Shown: positions 7,588-14,382 of the stretch, piece after piece
How the letters are laid out: each line of letters begins with the position of its first letter
Position numbering within the stretch: the first letter of the stretch is position 1
Source of the DNA: Aminipila luticellarii
Lineage (GTDB): Bacteria; Bacillota; Clostridia; Peptostreptococcales; Anaerovoracaceae
Direction: 5' to 3'
Length of the DNA: 64,000 nucleotides
Assembly (NCBI RefSeq): GCF_004103735.1
Contig: NZ_CP035281.1
Coordinates: forward strand, 62,001-126,000
The notes under the pieces: model-generated
Told to the model about the DNA's origin: nothing
Seen by the model: the letters and a program-made list of their open reading frames with translations, nothing else
The model's database searches: none
Position numbers and translations under genes: made by a program

Positions 7588-10182
7588 TTGAAAGGTAACA
7601 AAGTGATGTCATATAAAAAAAGGCATACATATGTGGCTGTCATAATTATTTCGATAATTATTTTCAGCAGCTTTATACCATATACCTCCTATGCAGAAGG
7701 GAAAAAACAGGCGGATATAATTAAAGTTGGATATTTCCAGCTGGAGGGGTTTAATGATGTTTCCCGAGATGGGCATTTCAGTGGATATGGGTACGAATAC
7801 TTAATGGAAATCGCCAAATATACAGGGTGGGATTATGATTTTGTATATAAGGTGAGGGATCCCGCTACGGGTGATGAGCACAGGATGACTTACGAAGAAG
7901 CCCTTAAGATGCTGGAAGAAGGTCAGGTAGATATCGTTTGCAATGTGGAAAAAACAGAACAGACGGAACGTGCTTTTCTCTTTCCGGCATTCTCTCTTGA
8001 AGAGGATTACGGGGTTCTCTCTGTAAGGCGAGAGGATGTAAAATACAGCCGAAAAAATCTGCACACCTTGGATGGAATCACGATTGGCGTATGGTCTGGC
8101 AGTACTCGAAACGAGGAAATCAAGACCTATCTAACGGCCAATCACATTCCTTTTAAGCTGGTGGCTTTCTCTACCGCAGAGGAAATAAAAAAAGCATTGG
8201 CCGAAACAAAAACAGTGGATGCCATTTATACAAATAATATCCGGTGTCAGGAAGGAGAACGGACGCTTCTCCGATTGAAGCCCGGTTCTTTTTATGCGGT
8301 TACAAATAAGCAGAAGCAAGAGCTGTGCGATCAGCTGGATGGGGCCTTAGAAGAAATAACCGGGAAACATCCGCAGTTCGCGGCGGAGCTATACAAGAAA
8401 TATTACAGCTGTTTAAAAGAAGAACCTATTGTATGGACACCGGAAGAATGGGAATATATGAAACAGAATCCGGTCATCGATGTCGGAATCGATGCAGCTT
8501 TTATTCCCATCGAGTATTATGATAAAGACGAGCGTAAGGCTTCCGGTATCGCAGGAGATGTCCTGGACCATATAACGGCTGTGACAGGTCTGACCTTTAA
8601 CAGTATACCGTATGACAGATACCGGGACATCTGGAAGGAGACTGACAAAGATAAGGTTCAGCTTATTTCTACCTTTGGCGCCGATTATCAGTGGGCTTCG
8701 GCACATCATGTGCGGCTGACCTCGGCCTATTTAAATATACCGGTCAGCGTGGTCTCACAGTATTACATAAAGGATTACACCCTTCCAAATCTCAAGGTGG
8801 CGGTAGTAAAAGGCTATTTTTTAACGGACAAAATTCACAAGACTATGAAGTATGACCATTTGGTCTATTGCAATAGCTTAAAAGACTGCGTGGCGGCCGT
8901 CAATAAGGGGACCGCAGATATTACATATATTCCTACGTACAGTGCGGATTATTTCGGCTCTCATGCAAGATATACCCGAATAAGAACATATGCCGTACCG
9001 GATTTTAATTATAAGGTCTGTTTTGCCGTGCCGGATGACAAGGATATCCGATTATATCAGATCATCAATAAAGCGATCAATAACATACCGCAGAATGAAA
9101 TTGATAAAATAGTCTTTGATAATATTTTATTTGACGGAAGTCAGGACGGATATTTTGATTACGTTTATAAATATCCGATATTTACTCTGGCTGTGATTTG
9201 TTTGCTATGGATGGGCATACTTCTGGTGATTTATCGCAACAGAAAACTGGAACGAACAGTAAAAAAGGAATTGCAGTTAAATGATGAAAAAATTCATATT
9301 GCTTTAGCTCAGACAAATATGATCGTATGGGAATTTGATCTGGTCAATAAATGTATCGTCCGGACAAAAGGAACGAAAAGCTGGATAGGTATGAAGGATA
9401 AAATGGACAATGTTCCTCAGAGCCTGATCGAATCCGGATATGTTCATCCTGATTCTGCCGATGCGTTCGTGAAAATGTTTCAGGATATCTTGGCAGGCGC
9501 AAAAGTGGCGTCCGGCTTATTTAAGCTGAAGAAAAGGGAAAGGGACGGAGGATGGGCAGGCCAGTATATCTGGGAAGAAATTAAAATGACCAATCTTTTT
9601 GATGAGGACGGAAAAGCTATCCGCGCAGTAGGATTAGCCGAAGATGTAACAGACAAAATCAATGAAGAACTGAGATTAAAAGATAAGGCATCAAGAGACG
9701 CATTAACCAATCTTTTAAACAGAACCTCTTTTCAGGCCTATGTGCAAGACTTTTTACAAAAAGAATATCAAAAGGAGTCCATCAGTGCGCTGATTATATT
9801 GGATACAGATGATTTTAAAAGAGCGAATGATACCCACGGCCATTTCTATGGAGACGAAGTCCTGAAAAGTATTGCTTTGAAGCTGACAAAGCTGTTCCGG
9901 ACAGAAGATCTTGTAGGGAGGCTGGGCGGAGATGAATTTATTATCTTCATGAAAAATGCCGGCTCCTTTGAAAACGTGGAGAAAAAGGCAAAACAAATTT
10001 GTAACAGTCTGGTCTTTGAAAAGGATAGCCTGGTCACCACTTGCTCCGCCGGAATAGCCATTGTGCCGAACGGCTATGTAAATTATGATCTGCTCTATAA
10101 ATATGCGGATGAAGCCATGTACGAGGCAAAAAAATGCGGAAAGTGCAGATATGTGATTTATGATGCCAGCCAGATTGGGTAA
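7588..10182 (+). CDS. Membrane diguanylate cyclase with two solute-binding sensor domains
   Basis: Predicted to make cyclic di-GMP from GTP in response to an extracellular ligand. The 864-residue protein has an N-terminal signal segment, two tandem periplasmic-binding-protein type 3 domains (about residues 35-275 and 290-510), a transmembrane helix near 535-555, a PAS-like region (about 570-690) and a C-terminal GGDEF domain. The active-site motif is an intact GGDEF near residue 780, with an RTED inhibitory-site motif (RxxD) five residues upstream, so product inhibition is likely. The chosen TTG at 7588 has AAAAGG at 9-nt spacing; the ATG at 7606 is an alternative start. SBP-type sensors often bind amino acids, but the ligand is unknown. 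It is monocistronic and divergent from aro. Confidence 0.9.
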   Translation: MKGNKVMSYKKRHTYVAVIIISIIIFSSFIPYTSYAEGKKQADIIKVGYFQLEGFNDVSRDGHFSGYGYEYLMEIAKYTGWDYDFVYKVRDPATGDEHRMTYEEALKMLEEGQVDIVCNVEKTEQTERAFLFPAFSLEEDYGVLSVRREDVKYSRKNLHTLDGITIGVWSGSTRNEEIKTYLTANHIPFKLVAFSTAEEIKKALAETKTVDAIYTNNIRCQEGERTLLRLKPGSFYAVTNKQKQELCDQLDGALEEITGKHPQFAAELYKKYYSCLKEEPIVWTPEEWEYMKQNPVIDVGIDAAFIPIEYYDKDERKASGIAGDVLDHITAVTGLTFNSIPYDRYRDIWKETDKDKVQLISTFGADYQWASAHHVRLTSAYLNIPVSVVSQYYIKDYTLPNLKVAVVKGYFLTDKIHKTMKYDHLVYCNSLKDCVAAVNKGTADITYIPTYSADYFGSHARYTRIRTYAVPDFNYKVCFAVPDDKDIRLYQIINKAINNIPQNEIDKIVFDNILFDGSQDGYFDYVYKYPIFTLAVICLLWMGILLVIYRNRKLERTVKKELQLNDEKIHIALAQTNMIVWEFDLVNKCIVRTKGTKSWIGMKDKMDNVPQSLIESGYVHPDSADAFVKMFQDILAGAKVASGLFKLKKRERDGGWAGQYIWEEIKMTNLFDEDGKAIRAVGLAEDVTDKINEELRLKDKASRDALTNLLNRTSFQAYVQDFLQKEYQKESISALIILDTDDFKRANDTHGHFYGDEVLKSIALKLTKLFRTEDLVGRLGGDEFIIFMKNAGSFENVEKKAKQICNSLVFEKDSLVTTCSAGIAIVPNGYVNYDLLYKYADEAMYEAKKCGKCRYVIYDASQIG

Positions 10183-10227
10183 AGGGCAAAGTTTACTTGA
10201 AAACAGAACATTTGTTTGCATTCTGCT

Positions 10228-10256
10228 TGACTTAAAGGGAGTAAGATGTTAATATA
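10228..10256 (+). promoter_or_regulatory. Promoter of the methyltransferase gene
   Basis: TTGACT (10228-10233), 17-nt spacer, TAATAT (10251-10256), 27 nt before the methyltransferase ATG. Confidence 0.65.
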
Positions 10257-10283
10257 TTTTCATAACTTATTTGGAGGGTATTT

Positions 10284-11579
10284 ATGGAATATGTAATCGA
10301 TAAAAGTCAAGTACACGCCATCATGGAAAAGAGAAATATCAGGACACAATCAAATTTAGCAGAGCGTCTGGGTATAACAAAGAATCAATTATCCGTCATT
10401 TTATCGGAAAAAAGTAACCCTTTGAAGAGTAATTATCAGAAATTATGTGATGTTCTTGAGGTAGAGCCAATGGATATTATTATACCCAAAGCGAAACTTG
10501 ACAAGGCTCAAAAAGATAAAGTAGTATCAGAGAGTCAATTAGACGATGTGGATGTCAGATATATCAAGGGGAAAAGGCCTTATCATTCAGTGGAGCTTTT
10601 CGCCGGAGCCGGAGGCTTAGCTTTAGGCTTAGAAATGGCAGGATTTCAGGCAGAAGGCTTGGTAGAAATCGATAAGTATGCGGCACAGACATTAAGACAA
10701 AATCGTCCGGAATGGAATGTCATTGAGGATGATATTATTAAGGTATCAGAAAGCGGGATTAGGAATTATTTACCAAAGAACTGTGAAATTGATTTTGTTT
10801 CCGGAGGGTATCCTTGTCAGGCATTTAGTTATGCAGGGCATAAATTAGGATTAGATGATGTGCGAGGAACCATGTTCTTCTATTTTGCAAAAATAATTAA
10901 AGATTTAAATCCAAAGGTGTTCTTAGCGGAAAACGTGAAGGGGTTGACGACACACGATAATGGAAAAACACTGCAAACGATGCTAGGTATTTATGAGAGC
11001 ATGAATTACCATGTAACCTGGAATATTTTAAAGGCAAATAATTACGGTGTTGCTCAAAAGCGAGAAAGGGTAGTCATCATAGGCATCCGCAATGATATTG
11101 ATATTCCGTATCGTTTACCAAAAGAATATGATTATAAACCAGTTCTGCGGGATGTATTACAAAATGTGCCCGAATCAATAGGAGAAAAATATCCTGAGAA
11201 AAAACGTAAGGTTTTGGAGCTAGTCCCTGCGGGTGGTTACTGGAGAGATTTACCGGAAGATATAGCAAAAGAGTATATGGGAAAAAGTTATTATTCCGGT
11301 GGAGGAAGAACCGGTATGGCAAGAAGGATTTCATGGGATGAACCAAGCTTGACTCTCACTTGCAGCCCTGCACAAAAACAAACAGAAAGATGTCATCCGG
11401 AAGAAACCCGACCGTTTAATGTCCGGGAATACGCCAGAATTCAAAGCTTTCCAGACGAATGGAGTTTTTCCGGATCCATGGGACAACAGTATAAGCAGAT
11501 TGGAAATGCAGTCCCGGTGGAGTTTGCAAAGGCCGTGGGATTATCCATAATAGATGTATTAAATAAAGCAGAGAGTTAA
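10284..11579 (+). CDS. Type II DNA (cytosine-5) methyltransferase with N-terminal HTH domain
   Basis: Methylates C5 of cytosine at the recognition site and protects the host from the partner nuclease. The 431-residue protein starts with a Cro/CI-like helix-turn-helix (about residues 8-65), then has the C5 methyltransferase motifs in order: motif I FAGAGGLALG near 108, motif IV GGYPCQAFSY with the catalytic Cys near 177, motif VI AENVKG, motif VIII QKRERVVIIG and motif X IGNAVPVEFA near 410. N-terminal HTH domains on C5 methyltransferases such as M.EcoRII and M.SsoII repress their own genes, so autoregulation is likely here. It is convergent with the nuclease gene and overlaps it by 4 nt. Specificity is not readable, though RGGNCCY-like is possible if the partner is EcoO109I-like. 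Base composition looks more AT-rich than in the flanking genes. Confidence 0.94.
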   Translation: MEYVIDKSQVHAIMEKRNIRTQSNLAERLGITKNQLSVILSEKSNPLKSNYQKLCDVLEVEPMDIIIPKAKLDKAQKDKVVSESQLDDVDVRYIKGKRPYHSVELFAGAGGLALGLEMAGFQAEGLVEIDKYAAQTLRQNRPEWNVIEDDIIKVSESGIRNYLPKNCEIDFVSGGYPCQAFSYAGHKLGLDDVRGTMFFYFAKIIKDLNPKVFLAENVKGLTTHDNGKTLQTMLGIYESMNYHVTWNILKANNYGVAQKRERVVIIGIRNDIDIPYRLPKEYDYKPVLRDVLQNVPESIGEKYPEKKRKVLELVPAGGYWRDLPEDIAKEYMGKSYYSGGGRTGMARRISWDEPSLTLTCSPAQKQTERCHPEETRPFNVREYARIQSFPDEWSFSGSMGQQYKQIGNAVPVEFAKAVGLSIIDVLNKAES

Positions 11580-11592
11580 ATCTCTGCTTTTT
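11565..11592. terminator. Bidirectional terminator spanning both R-M stop codons
   Basis: A 10-bp perfect stem (11565-11574 with 11581-11590) has a 6-nt loop that contains both overlapping stop codons. T-rich sequence follows on each strand, so one hairpin can end both convergent transcripts. Confidence 0.8.
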
Positions 11593-12460
11593 CGATTTCA
11601 TCTGCCAGTTTATTAATAACCGTATTCAGTAATTCACGACCGTCATATTCGGAAGCAACCTCATCAATGGCAGCGGTCAATTCTTTATAAAAGCTACTGT
11701 CTCCAGTCAATCGATACCAAAAATCTTGACCGATGTATACAGGATAATCTTTCTTGATCTTTTTATAATGACCACTTAGATCTTTCTCTTCCCCATAAAA
11801 AACGCCAACAATTAAATCATTAAAACCTATATTCAGGTTATTTGTCCTTGCCAGATTCTTTACACCAATGAAATGGTCTGAAATGGTCTTCACATCATCT
11901 TTATTAATGGTATTGGGGCCTGCTTTGATCTGGCAGTACTTTCTTCTTCCATCAATAAAGTCTTCAAATTCAATGTCGATACCTGAGGTGGTAGACGCAT
12001 ATCCTGACAAAATATCACTGCAGAATTTTTGAAGATTTGTTCCAAAGGTCGTATTAATGGATGAGCCCAGTGTTCTTGCATAAATCAGTGCGGTCGCCTT
12101 GCTTTTAGCAGAACTATCCCCTAAAAGAAAGTTAGCTTTGTAATTGTCTAAAAAAGGATTCAGATTAAATTCTTTTAAATGCTCAAGCTTTAAAGTATTT
12201 TTGCGATGGTTCTCTGCAATTTCTTCACGAAAGAATTTCTTCCATTTTTGAATTATTTCCGCTTTATGTTTGCGTGCAGAAATAATATTCTCAAGGGCAT
12301 CTTTGCCTAAACGTTTATATAATTCAAATTCTGAAACACTAAGACCAAGCAAATTGTAATCGACAGAGGTTTCACTTTCATATATAAGAGAAACTTGTTT
12401 GGTAAATTCGTCATAGGTTATTTCTTCATTTATATATTTGTCAAAAAAAGTATCGTTCAT
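11576..12460 (-). CDS. Type II restriction endonuclease, probably EcoO109I/PmeII-like
   Basis: Predicted to cleave unmodified DNA at the site protected by the neighbouring C5 methyltransferase. The 294-residue protein has a largely helical N-terminal half and a core with GIDIEFEDFIDG followed by QIKAGPNTIN (about residues 163-190). This fits a PD-(D/E)XK fold in which Gln replaces the central acidic residue (Asp...QxK). The family assignment comes from recognition of this block, not from a search. Its own promoter lies at 12493-12521. The ribosome binding site before the ATG at 12460 is an unusual run of G residues. It is convergent with and partly overlaps the methyltransferase gene. Confidence 0.75.
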   Translation of the reverse strand: MNDTFFDKYINEEITYDEFTKQVSLIYESETSVDYNLLGLSVSEFELYKRLGKDALENIISARKHKAEIIQKWKKFFREEIAENHRKNTLKLEHLKEFNLNPFLDNYKANFLLGDSSAKSKATALIYARTLGSSINTTFGTNLQKFCSDILSGYASTTSGIDIEFEDFIDGRRKYCQIKAGPNTINKDDVKTISDHFIGVKNLARTNNLNIGFNDLIVGVFYGEEKDLSGHYKKIKKDYPVYIGQDFWYRLTGDSSFYKELTAAIDEVASEYDGRELLNTVINKLADEIEKAEI

Positions 12461-12492
12461 AGTGCCCCCCGCCGTATATAAAATTTATGTAT

Positions 12493-12521
12493 ATTATACT
12501 GTAGATAACAGGAAAAGTAAA
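12493..12521 (-). promoter_or_regulatory. Promoter of the restriction endonuclease gene
   Basis: Minus-strand TTTACT (12521-12516), 17-nt spacer, TATAAT (12498-12493), about 33 nt before the ATG. Confidence 0.6.
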
Positions 12522-12555
12522 ATCTATTATAAACTTATAAAGGTAAAAGCGACAA

Positions 12556-12592
12556 AAAAACTGCTGTCTGCCGAATACAGAAAGCAGTTTTT
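12556..12592 (-). terminator. Terminator of the leu operon
   Basis: A 10-bp A/T-flanked stem (12556-12565 with 12583-12592) has an extra inner TCTG/CAGA pairing and is followed on the minus strand by a T-run. It lies 27 nt after the last leuC stop. Confidence 0.8.
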
Positions 12593-12619
12593 CGATTAGG
12601 AGATTAGAATACTTCGCCT

Positions 12620-13870
12620 TCACCCCTGCGGAGGACTGGTTATTTCCCCATGCAGAGCCGCCAGTGCCGCGGATATGGGAGACGCTAAGTAGATTTCTAC
12701 TTTTGATGTTCCCATCCTGCCGAGGAAATTGCGGTTGTTTGTTGCCACGACCCGTTCTCCGTCGGACAGAATACCCCCTGTACGGCCGCAGCAAAGCCCG
12801 CAGCCCGGGTGTGTAATAATTGCTCCGGCCGCAGCCAGAGTTTCTAGGATGCCGGCTCGTGTGGCTTCCATAAAAACCTTGCGGCTGGCGGGCGTAACAA
12901 TTAATTTCACGAAAGGTGAGATAGTCTTCCCTTCGAGAATTTTGGCGGCAGCTTCCAGATCTTCCAAACGGCCGTTGGTACAGGAACCGATAAAGACTTG
13001 ATCAATTTGGATTCCCGCAAGCTGAGCCACAGGCTTGATATGATCCACCTGCGAAGGGCAGGCCATGACCGGAACAAAATCTTCCGCCCTGTAGTTTATA
13101 GTTTTATAATAGACGGCGTCTCCATCCCCTTTCAGTGAGGTTTCCTGCTCAGTCAGCTTGATCTGACAATACTCTGCCGTTTTTTCATCCGGTGTGAACA
13201 AAGCACATTTTGCACCGGCTTCAACAGCCATATTGGACATGGTCATGCGGCTGGCAACTGTCATCTCTTCAACGGCACTGCCGGTAAATTCCAAGGCCTT
13301 GTAAGTGGCTCCGTCCGCCCCTAAATCGCCGATCAGGGTTAAAATAATATCTTTAGAAGTCACATTTTCGGGAAGAGTTCCCTCTATGTTTACCTGAATG
13401 GTTTCCGGAACCTTGATCCACATAGTTCCGGTTCCTAAAATACTGGCCATTTCTGTATAGCCGATTCCGGAAGAAAAGGCACCTACACAGCCATAAGTAG
13501 TAGTATGGCTGTCCGTTCCGAACACTACGTCACCCGGTTTCACATAACCGGCCTCGGTCATAAGCTGATGACAGATTCCGTCCGAACGGTGCACATGCGT
13601 CATACCATATTTCTTCGCAAACGCATCTCCGATCTTAAAGTGTCTCACATCATCCTGCTGACTGGCAGGAACCAGATGGTCATAGATCAATACGACTCTA
13701 TCCGGATTCCAAAGCTTTGAAAAGCCCATTTCTTCAAACTTCTCAGCCACAAAGGGAATAAATATATCATGAATCATAACACGATCTACTTGAACCGTGA
13801 CAATATCTCCCGCCTGAACCGGTGCAGAAATATTACGGCTTACTAATTTTTCTATAAATGTCTGTCCCAC
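12620..13870 (-). CDS. leuC: 3-isopropylmalate dehydratase-type large subunit, copy with canonical Fe-S motif
   Basis: Aconitase-family [4Fe-4S] hydro-lyase subunit that isomerises 2- to 3-isopropylmalate or a related acid with its small subunit. The 416-residue protein has GTDSHTTTYG, the cluster cysteines in GSCTNGR near residue 300 and the canonical PGCGLCCG motif near 360. The start is GTG at 13870 with AAGGAGG at 6-nt spacing. It follows its small subunit by 11 nt and is the last gene of the leu operon. A second, different large-small pair lies immediately upstream, so one of the two may use homologous substrates such as citramalate, homoaconitate or dimethylmalate. The sequence does not say which. 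Confidence 0.88.
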   Translation of the reverse strand: MGQTFIEKLVSRNISAPVQAGDIVTVQVDRVMIHDIFIPFVAEKFEEMGFSKLWNPDRVVLIYDHLVPASQQDDVRHFKIGDAFAKKYGMTHVHRSDGICHQLMTEAGYVKPGDVVFGTDSHTTTYGCVGAFSSGIGYTEMASILGTGTMWIKVPETIQVNIEGTLPENVTSKDIILTLIGDLGADGATYKALEFTGSAVEEMTVASRMTMSNMAVEAGAKCALFTPDEKTAEYCQIKLTEQETSLKGDGDAVYYKTINYRAEDFVPVMACPSQVDHIKPVAQLAGIQIDQVFIGSCTNGRLEDLEAAAKILEGKTISPFVKLIVTPASRKVFMEATRAGILETLAAAGAIITHPGCGLCCGRTGGILSDGERVVATNNRNFLGRMGTSKVEIYLASPISAALAALHGEITSPPQG

Positions 13871-13881
13871 AGTGTTCCTCC

Positions 13882-14382
13882 TTACTCAAGCGGTTCCAAA
13901 CCATTGCGTTTTCGCATGGCCGCTACCAGTCCCCCCGCCTGCAGGATATCCAGTAAATTCTGCGGCAAGGAAGCAATCGGATATTCCTTGCCGTTACATT
14001 TTATATAATGATTTACGCATACCTCGATTTCCTGCCCTTCTGTCACTGCGTCGTGAATAAAAGGGTTTTCAATCAGCAACAGTCCGTTGTTAATCGCATT
14101 TCTGAAAAAAATGCGGGCAAAGGACTTTGCGATGACACATTTTATATGCAGAGCCTTTATAATCTCCGGAGCCTGCTCCCGGGAAGAGCCGCAGCCAAAA
14201 TTTTTTCCGGCTACGATAACGTCACCTTCTTTAATTTGTCCGGCAAGCTCCGGGCGTAGGGGGGAAAAGGCGTATTGTTTCATATCATCAATGGTTTTCA
14301 GTGCCAGATAATCCGTAGGAATAATAATATCCGTATCAATATCGTCTCCTAAAACCCATACTCTGCTTTTAAACGTTTCCAT
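13882..14382 (-). CDS. leuD: 3-isopropylmalate dehydratase-type small subunit (downstream copy)
   Basis: Swivelling small subunit that partners the large subunit at 12620-13870. The 166-residue protein has the GCGSSREQAP motif near residue 65, including the catalytic-site arginine. The substrate-specificity loop after the IDTDIIIP segment reads DYLALK, unlike the SQYLLLP of the upstream copy; in this superfamily the loop helps define the substrate. The GTG at 14391 lies in the Shine-Dalgarno region; the ATG at 14382 has GGAG at 8-nt spacing. Which of the two pairs is the true LeuCD is not resolved. Confidence 0.87.
   Translation of the reverse strand: METFKSRVWVLGDDIDTDIIIPTDYLALKTIDDMKQYAFSPLRPELAGQIKEGDVIVAGKNFGCGSSREQAPEIIKALHIKCVIAKSFARIFFRNAINNGLLLIENPFIHDAVTEGQEIEVCVNHYIKCNGKEYPIASLPQNLLDILQAGGLVAAMRKRNGLEPLE

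What the first reader, a model, noticed from the sequence alone, without database searches (positions are those of the whole stretch)
10284..12460. R-M pair with overlapping stops inside one bidirectional terminator and an HTH-fused methyltransferase
The methyltransferase and nuclease genes converge and overlap by 4 nt; both stop codons lie in the loop of one perfect 10-bp hairpin with T-tracts on both strands. Each gene has its own promoter, and the methyltransferase carries an N-terminal HTH, as do the autoregulatory M.EcoRII and M.SsoII. Control of the R:M ratio may thus combine self-repression of M with transcriptional collision or antisense RNA at the shared end. No separate C protein is visible.
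Basis: partly seen in the sequence, partly recalled or inferred. Interest (0 to 1): 0.5.

Follow-up and report, generated by a model that had tools for sequence, protein, structure and literature searches.

The report
Self-repressing methyltransferase gene with nuclease partner
A small bacterial DNA-defence gene pair in which the protective enzyme very probably switches off its own gene by binding a DNA site that is kept almost unchanged in distant relatives; a new variant of a known type of control rather than a new kind of system.

Summary
The geometry is as described: an HTH-fused C5 methyltransferase (10284-11579, +) and a nuclease (11576-12460, -) converge, share a 4-nt TTAA, and both stops lie in the loop of a perfect 10-bp hairpin. 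The nuclease belongs to the EcoO109I/PmeII family. The new evidence is a 22-nt site (10247-10268) over the methyltransferase's -10 box. It is kept at 17-22 of 22 positions in six relatives whose M proteins are 53-86% identical. It occurs exactly once in each of 7 of 9 genomes or records holding this type, with 1 unrelated hit in 382 class genomes. It is missing from every nuclease promoter except where the genes diverge. Self-repression of M, as in M.SsoII/M.Ecl18kI, is the best reading. Transcriptional collision or antisense RNA is not supported: the terminator would prevent it. HTH-fused M goes with convergent genes (8 of 9), plain M with tandem genes (11 of 11, plus one partial), but the loci are not independent. 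The predicted target is GGNCC. A congener has nothing between the same neighbours, so this is a mobile cassette. No binding, methylation or cleavage was tested. What delays the nuclease in a new host is unexplained.

The parts
10284..11579 (+). C5-cytosine DNA methyltransferase, 431 aa, with N-terminal Cro/C1-type HTH
   Evidence: PF00145 E 5.2e-85; HTH_26 E 2.8e-8; PADLOC MTase_II profile matched over residues 6-428
10320..10490 (+). HTH domain, residues 13-69 of M; turn and recognition helix ITKNQLSV
   Evidence: alignment A1
10247..10268 (+). predicted operator TGTTAATATATTTTCATAACTT (imperfect inverted repeat GTTA-N11-TAAC)
   Evidence: kept in six relatives; one copy per genome
10227..10255 (+). 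promoter of M: TTGACT-17-TAATAT; the -10 box lies inside the operator
   Evidence: TTGAC mostly conserved
11576..12460 (-). type II restriction endonuclease, 294 aa, EcoO109I/PmeII family
   Evidence: PF14511 E 4.9e-35; profile hit to EcoO109I 1wtd E 2e-15; relatives named PmeII family
11924..11977 (-). candidate active site, D162 to K179 (GIDIEF...YCQIKAG)
   Evidence: both invariant in 20 members; aligned with D110 and K126 of EcoO109I
11565..11590 (.). 10-bp hairpin, shared terminator, encoding both protein C-termini (KAE-)
11576..11579 (.). TTAA: the two overlapping TAA stops
12493..12521 (-). promoter of R: TTTACT-17-TATAAT; no copy of the M operator
10184..12620 (.). whole R-M cassette, inserted between a GGDEF gene and leuC; GC 0.368 against 0.423 and 0.458 in the flanks

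Best explanation
It is a mobile type II restriction-modification cassette. M methylates a cytosine in a GGNCC-type site; R, an EcoO109I-family nuclease, cuts the same site or a longer one containing it. M is also its own repressor: two M molecules bind with their N-terminal HTH domains to the inverted repeat at 10247-10268 and keep RNA polymerase off the M promoter, whose -10 box lies inside that site. On arrival in a new cell M is transcribed freely; once M has accumulated, its gene is throttled. R has its own promoter, which M does not appear to bind. The hairpin at the shared 3' end stops both transcripts, so the facing genes do not disturb each other. Shown here: family membership, geometry, conservation and near-uniqueness of the site. 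Inferred: binding, repression, specificity, termination on both strands.
For: The 22-nt window site matches at 22, 21, 22, 21, 17 and 19 of 22 positions upstream of M in L012, L013, L014, L031, L030 and L007, 15-18 nt before the start codon. Of 1000 shuffles of each upstream region, 0 reached the value in five loci and 1 in L030. 15 of the 21 positions of the core pattern are invariant in all seven loci, in an otherwise poorly conserved region. The degenerate pattern occurs exactly once in 7 of 9 genomes or records that hold the HTH type, and in 3 of 382 class genomes, two of them the known HTH loci; reversed-pattern control 0. The two loci without the pattern carry other inverted repeats before M (L006, a perfect palindrome; L029) and differ in the recognition helix (NKTQLSSML and SKNQLSMLL against TKNQLSV or SKNQLSV). 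Published model of the same design: M.SsoII/M.Ecl18kI, N-terminal HTH region bound as two molecules to an inverted repeat, competing with RNA polymerase at the M promoter. Specificity: 6 of 6 inspected plasmid relatives of the M catalytic domain adjoin an Eco47II-family nuclease, and Eco47II cuts GGNCC.
Against: No experiment. The repeat is imperfect in the window (GTTA/TAAC arms only; the arm search returned nothing for WIN and L012). Part of its conservation is the -10 box, and WIN, L012 and L014 share the identical site, so the loci are few and related. GGNCC is depleted in the own genome (0.36-0.40 of expectation) but also in three congeners in which no PF14511 match was found (0.45-0.61), so depletion barely supports the target. 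One class hit of the pattern lies before an unrelated SDR gene. In SsoII, repression of M favours R through divergent, competing promoters; here the genes converge, so that step cannot be copied and the delay of R is unexplained.
Confidence: 0.72

Rival explanations
1. The overlapping 3' ends regulate the R:M ratio by RNA polymerase collision or by antisense pairing of the two mRNAs.
For: Genes converge with a 4-nt overlap in 5 of 8 convergent loci; L006 and L030 have no strong hairpin at the junction; antisense control is known in EcoRI and Eco29kI from reverse promoters (passages).
Against: A perfect hairpin with a T tract sits on the overlap in the window and a terminator-like hairpin is kept in 5 of 8 convergent loci, which would stop transcripts before they enter the other gene. 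The known antisense cases use internal reverse promoters, not 3' overlaps. L031 and L014 have no overlap at all.
Confidence: 0.08
2. The conserved block upstream of M is only a strong promoter and leader; the HTH domain acts elsewhere or has lost its DNA-binding role.
For: The block contains the -10 box, lies 15-18 nt before the start codon, and its repeat is imperfect.
Against: Conservation runs about 13 nt beyond the -10 box, is dyad-like at its ends (GTTA/TAAC), is tied to the HTH sequence type, and is absent before the nuclease genes of the same convergent loci.
Confidence: 0.15
3. A host regulator, not M, controls one or both promoters.
For: The R promoters of L012 and L013 carry a repeat TACTTT-N11-AAAGTA between -35 and -10, imperfect in the window.
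Against: The M site follows the cassette between different hosts and onto a Lactiplantibacillus plasmid; the R-promoter repeat is seen only in three close relatives and coincides with the promoter boxes.
Confidence: 0.07

Closest known systems
SsoII / Ecl18kI restriction-modification systems (M.SsoII, M.Ecl18kI)
   Same: N-terminal HTH region fused to a C5 methyltransferase; inverted-repeat site at the M promoter; no C protein (passages of PMC3978073, PMC3695355, PMC6100179).
   Different: SsoII genes diverge with one shared intergenic region, site AGGACAAATTGTCCT, target CCNGG. Here the genes converge, the site is AT-rich with GTTA/TAAC ends, the predicted target is GGNCC and the nuclease is of the EcoO109I family.
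EcoO109I (R-M with C.EcoO109I)
   Same: Nuclease family PF14511 with the aligned D and K; predicted target has the same GGNCC core (RGGNCCY for EcoO109I is recalled).
   Different: EcoO109I uses a separate C protein (mentioned in passages of PMC4824078); here the regulator is fused to M.
Esp1396I and Csp231I
   Same: Convergent M against R with a predicted terminator between them (Csp231I) or convergent transcription (Esp1396I) (passages of PMC4824078 and PMC4041747).
   Different: Both have a C gene with R; Csp231I has a 152-nt intergenic region, not overlapping stops.
Eco47II-type GGNCC systems
   Same: M catalytic domain 55-61% identical to that of the window in the six inspected.
   Different: Their M lack this N-terminal type (of two scanned, one has none and one is MerR-like) and their nuclease is another family.

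Membership tests
EcoO109I/PmeII family of type II nucleases (PF14511) | sequence match over the family's curated cut-off | tested here: met
   121.5 bits against 22.5, profile 3-196 of 198
EcoO109I/PmeII family of type II nucleases (PF14511) | PD-(D/E)XK fold as in EcoO109I | tested here: inconclusive
   A medium-confidence model (pLDDT 63.8) has 1wtd/1wte as best VIA matches, Z 5.8 and 5.7, next 4.0, but below the level trusted, and no Foldseek match at E<=0.001. The sequence profile match to 1wtd has E 2e-15.
EcoO109I/PmeII family of type II nucleases (PF14511) | catalytic Asp and Lys | tested here: met
   D162 and K179 invariant in 20 members, aligned to D110 and K126 of 1wtd; that these two are catalytic in EcoO109I is recalled
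EcoO109I/PmeII family of type II nucleases (PF14511) | cleavage at RGGNCCY or a related site | not testable with these tools
   no enzyme assay
SsoII-type methyltransferases that regulate transcription | N-terminal HTH of about 70 residues fused to a C5 methyltransferase | tested here: met
SsoII-type methyltransferases that regulate transcription | inverted-repeat regulatory site at the M promoter, distinct from the methylation site | tested here: met
   site 10247-10268 over the -10 box; the only GGNCC in 10000-12700 is at 11916. Prediction from sequence only; the repeat is imperfect
SsoII-type methyltransferases that regulate transcription | binding to the site and repression of M | not testable with these tools
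   needs gel shift and reporter
SsoII-type methyltransferases that regulate transcription | divergent genes, so that repression of M favours R | tested here: not met
   genes converge in the window and 7 other loci; only L007 diverges. It works like SsoII for M, but is not filed as a member of the SsoII-like systems
C-protein-controlled R-M systems | separate small C gene | tested here: not met
   flanks of 100 and 160 bp leave no room

The most novel reading that the evidence does not exclude
Fusing the regulator to M freed R from M's transcript: the family moved from tandem M-R operons to a convergent layout in which one hairpin, written into both genes' last codons, ends both transcripts. 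If M's two uses exclude each other as in M.SsoII, the many unmethylated GGNCC sites of a naive genome would hold M away from its single operator, so M shuts its own gene only when the genome is protected: a methylation-sensing timer without a C protein.
Probability: 0.2. Interest if true: 0.6.

Novelty: new variant of a known kind. Interest (0 to 1): 0.36.

Why it matters
By 2013 a regulatory role had been confirmed by experiment for only six of more than 300 C5 methyltransferases (passage of PMC3695355). Here a specific site and a specific domain pair are predicted for a further group, joined to a different nuclease family and the opposite gene layout. That tests whether methyltransferase self-repression is enough to make a restriction system transferable when it cannot act on R through competing promoters.

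Tried and rejected
Operator copies before R: none better than shuffles in 8 of 9 loci; the ninth, L007, is the divergent locus that shares one site. GGNCC avoidance as proof of target: own genome lowest, but congeners are low too. Relatives of R in viral contigs: none. RNA families: none at 9000-14000. Structure of R: usable only as weak support; Foldseek gave no match at E<=0.001. Covariation of the hairpin in three loci: one pair changed on both sides (A-T, G-C, C-G), but 100 to 183 of 500 shuffles reach the values, so not significant by itself. A hit of the pattern in G182 was followed up and lies before an SDR gene with no methyltransferase near. PmeII literature: one paper in the listing, not read. 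Search for overlapping stop codons in R-M systems in print: nothing (one search, open-access library only).

Rows dropped before the gene-order count: L009 and L010 (partner is another methyltransferase class, annotated in tandem), L008 (broken pair), L015/L027 (contig edge), L122 (nuclease frame with stops), the second nuclease of L033, and duplicates of the same genome place.

Full report
Observation. M runs 10284-11579 on the + strand, R 11576-12460 on the - strand, sharing TTAA. The 26-nt hairpin 11565-11590 is perfect over 10 bp with both stops in its 6-nt loop. Stems this good (10 bp or more, loop 3-8) occur 6 times in the 64 kb. The terminator scan accepts it on the + strand only. Because the arms are coding in both directions, both proteins end in similar residues: M ...NKAES, R ...IEKAEI.

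What the proteins are. M has a C5 methyltransferase domain (PF00145, E 5.2e-85) and an N-terminal Cro/C1-type HTH (HTH_26, E 2.8e-8). R matches PF14511, RE_EcoO109I, at E 4.9e-35. A profile of 20 family members finds the EcoO109I structure 1wtd at E 2e-15 and aligns D162 and K179 with D110 and K126. The usual middle acidic residue is not conserved: Q177 here and S124 at the aligned place in 1wtd. A model from four sequences (mean pLDDT 63.8) has 1wtd and 1wte as its two best VIA matches (Z 5.8 and 5.7, next 4.0), which is weak by itself. NCBI calls relatives 'PmeII family'. The family is rare: 5 of 391 class genomes, 3 of 99 relatives, 10 of 398 phylum genomes, each count including the own genome.

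Mobility. In congener G392 the upstream GGDEF gene and leuC are direct neighbours with about 260 bp between them; in G391 another gene lies there. No PF14511 match was found in the three congeners. The cassette has GC 0.368 against 0.423 and 0.458 in its flanks. Relatives sit in other Bacillota and on plasmids of Aerococcus and Lactiplantibacillus.

The operator. Upstream regions of M from nine HTH-type loci were compared; the seven with the site were aligned. In these seven, including the window, the block TGTTAATATATTTTCATAACTT or a close variant lies 15-18 nt before the start codon and overlaps the -10 box. Six relatives match the window at 22, 21, 22, 21, 17 and 19 of 22 positions; shuffles reached these values in 0 of 1000 for five and 1 of 1000 for L030. 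The pattern GTTAWTATAWWWTCAYAACWT occurs exactly once in 7 of 9 genomes or records holding the type, and not in G800 (L029) or the L006 plasmid. These two have other repeats before M, a perfect 14-bp-arm palindrome in L006 and AGTTAAATATTTTTTTAACT in L029, and differ in the recognition helix. In 382 class genomes the pattern is found 3 times: the window, the L031 genome, and G182, where it precedes an SDR gene and no methyltransferase is near; the reversed pattern gives 0. This was not a fully blind test, because the pattern was built from the known loci.

The nuclease promoters carry no such site, except in L007, where the genes diverge and share 87 bp with one site. M therefore probably represses only itself in the convergent loci.

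Gene order. Of 21 loci with both genes, the 9 with an HTH-fused M are convergent (8) or divergent (1); the 11 without the HTH and 1 partial M are all in tandem. Fisher's p of 6e-6 (for 9 against 11) ignores relatedness. The exact 4-nt overlap is present in 5 of 8 convergent loci; the others have gaps of 9, 22 and 497 nt. A terminator-like hairpin lies at the junction in 5 of 8 (window, L012, L013, L014, L031), is weak in L030, absent in L006, and not comparable in L029. In L014 and L031 it has moved relative to the stops. The hairpin, not the overlap, looks like the kept feature, though pair changes in three close loci are too few to prove it.

Target. Close relatives of the M catalytic domain (55-61% identical) adjoin Eco47II-family nucleases in 6 of 6 plasmid loci inspected, of 23 records found. 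Eco47II homologues cut GGNCC (passage of PMC10305163). GGNCC methyltransferases of other bacteria are mentioned in passages of PMC9465063 and PMC4320837; their sequences were not compared here. GGNCC is depleted to 0.36-0.40 of expectation in the own genome and 0.45-0.61 in three congeners: compatible, not proof. EcoO109I's site RGGNCCY (recalled) contains this core.

Mechanism. The design for M is that of M.SsoII and M.Ecl18kI: two molecules bind an inverted repeat through the N-terminal HTH regions and keep RNA polymerase from the M promoter (passages of PMC3978073, PMC3695355, PMC6100179). In those systems the promoters diverge and repression of M favours R. That cannot happen with convergent genes, so here M control would only hold M at a set level, and R would depend on its own promoter.

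Verdict. Real, coherent and mostly of a known kind: a new variant of methyltransferase self-regulation with a testable site. What delays R in a new host is the open point.

Noticed in passing
12493-12521 (-); L012, L013 upstream of R: R promoters of three close relatives carry TACTTT-N11-AAAGTA (imperfect in the window) spanning the space between -35 and -10; cause unknown.
   Followed up: partly
L047, L058, L067 (MerR type), L046, L051 (Cro type): Viral contigs hold relatives of this M catalytic domain joined to at least two kinds of N-terminal DNA-binding domain, so regulator fusion seems to have happened more than once.
   Followed up: partly
L006 upstream of R and of M: Aerococcus plasmid: perfect palindromes before both genes, with different sequences.
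   Followed up: no
L008; L122: Decayed copies: the L. sakei plasmid has fragments of M and R; G899 has a nuclease frame with three stops.
   Followed up: no
12560-12589: By eye, a hairpin followed by a T run on the - strand, just upstream of the R promoter; probably the leuC terminator that insulates R.
   Followed up: no
10184-12620 and L131 5329-5898: The gap between the GGDEF gene and leuC holds the R-M cassette here, another gene in G391 and nothing in G392: a variable insertion place.
   Followed up: partly
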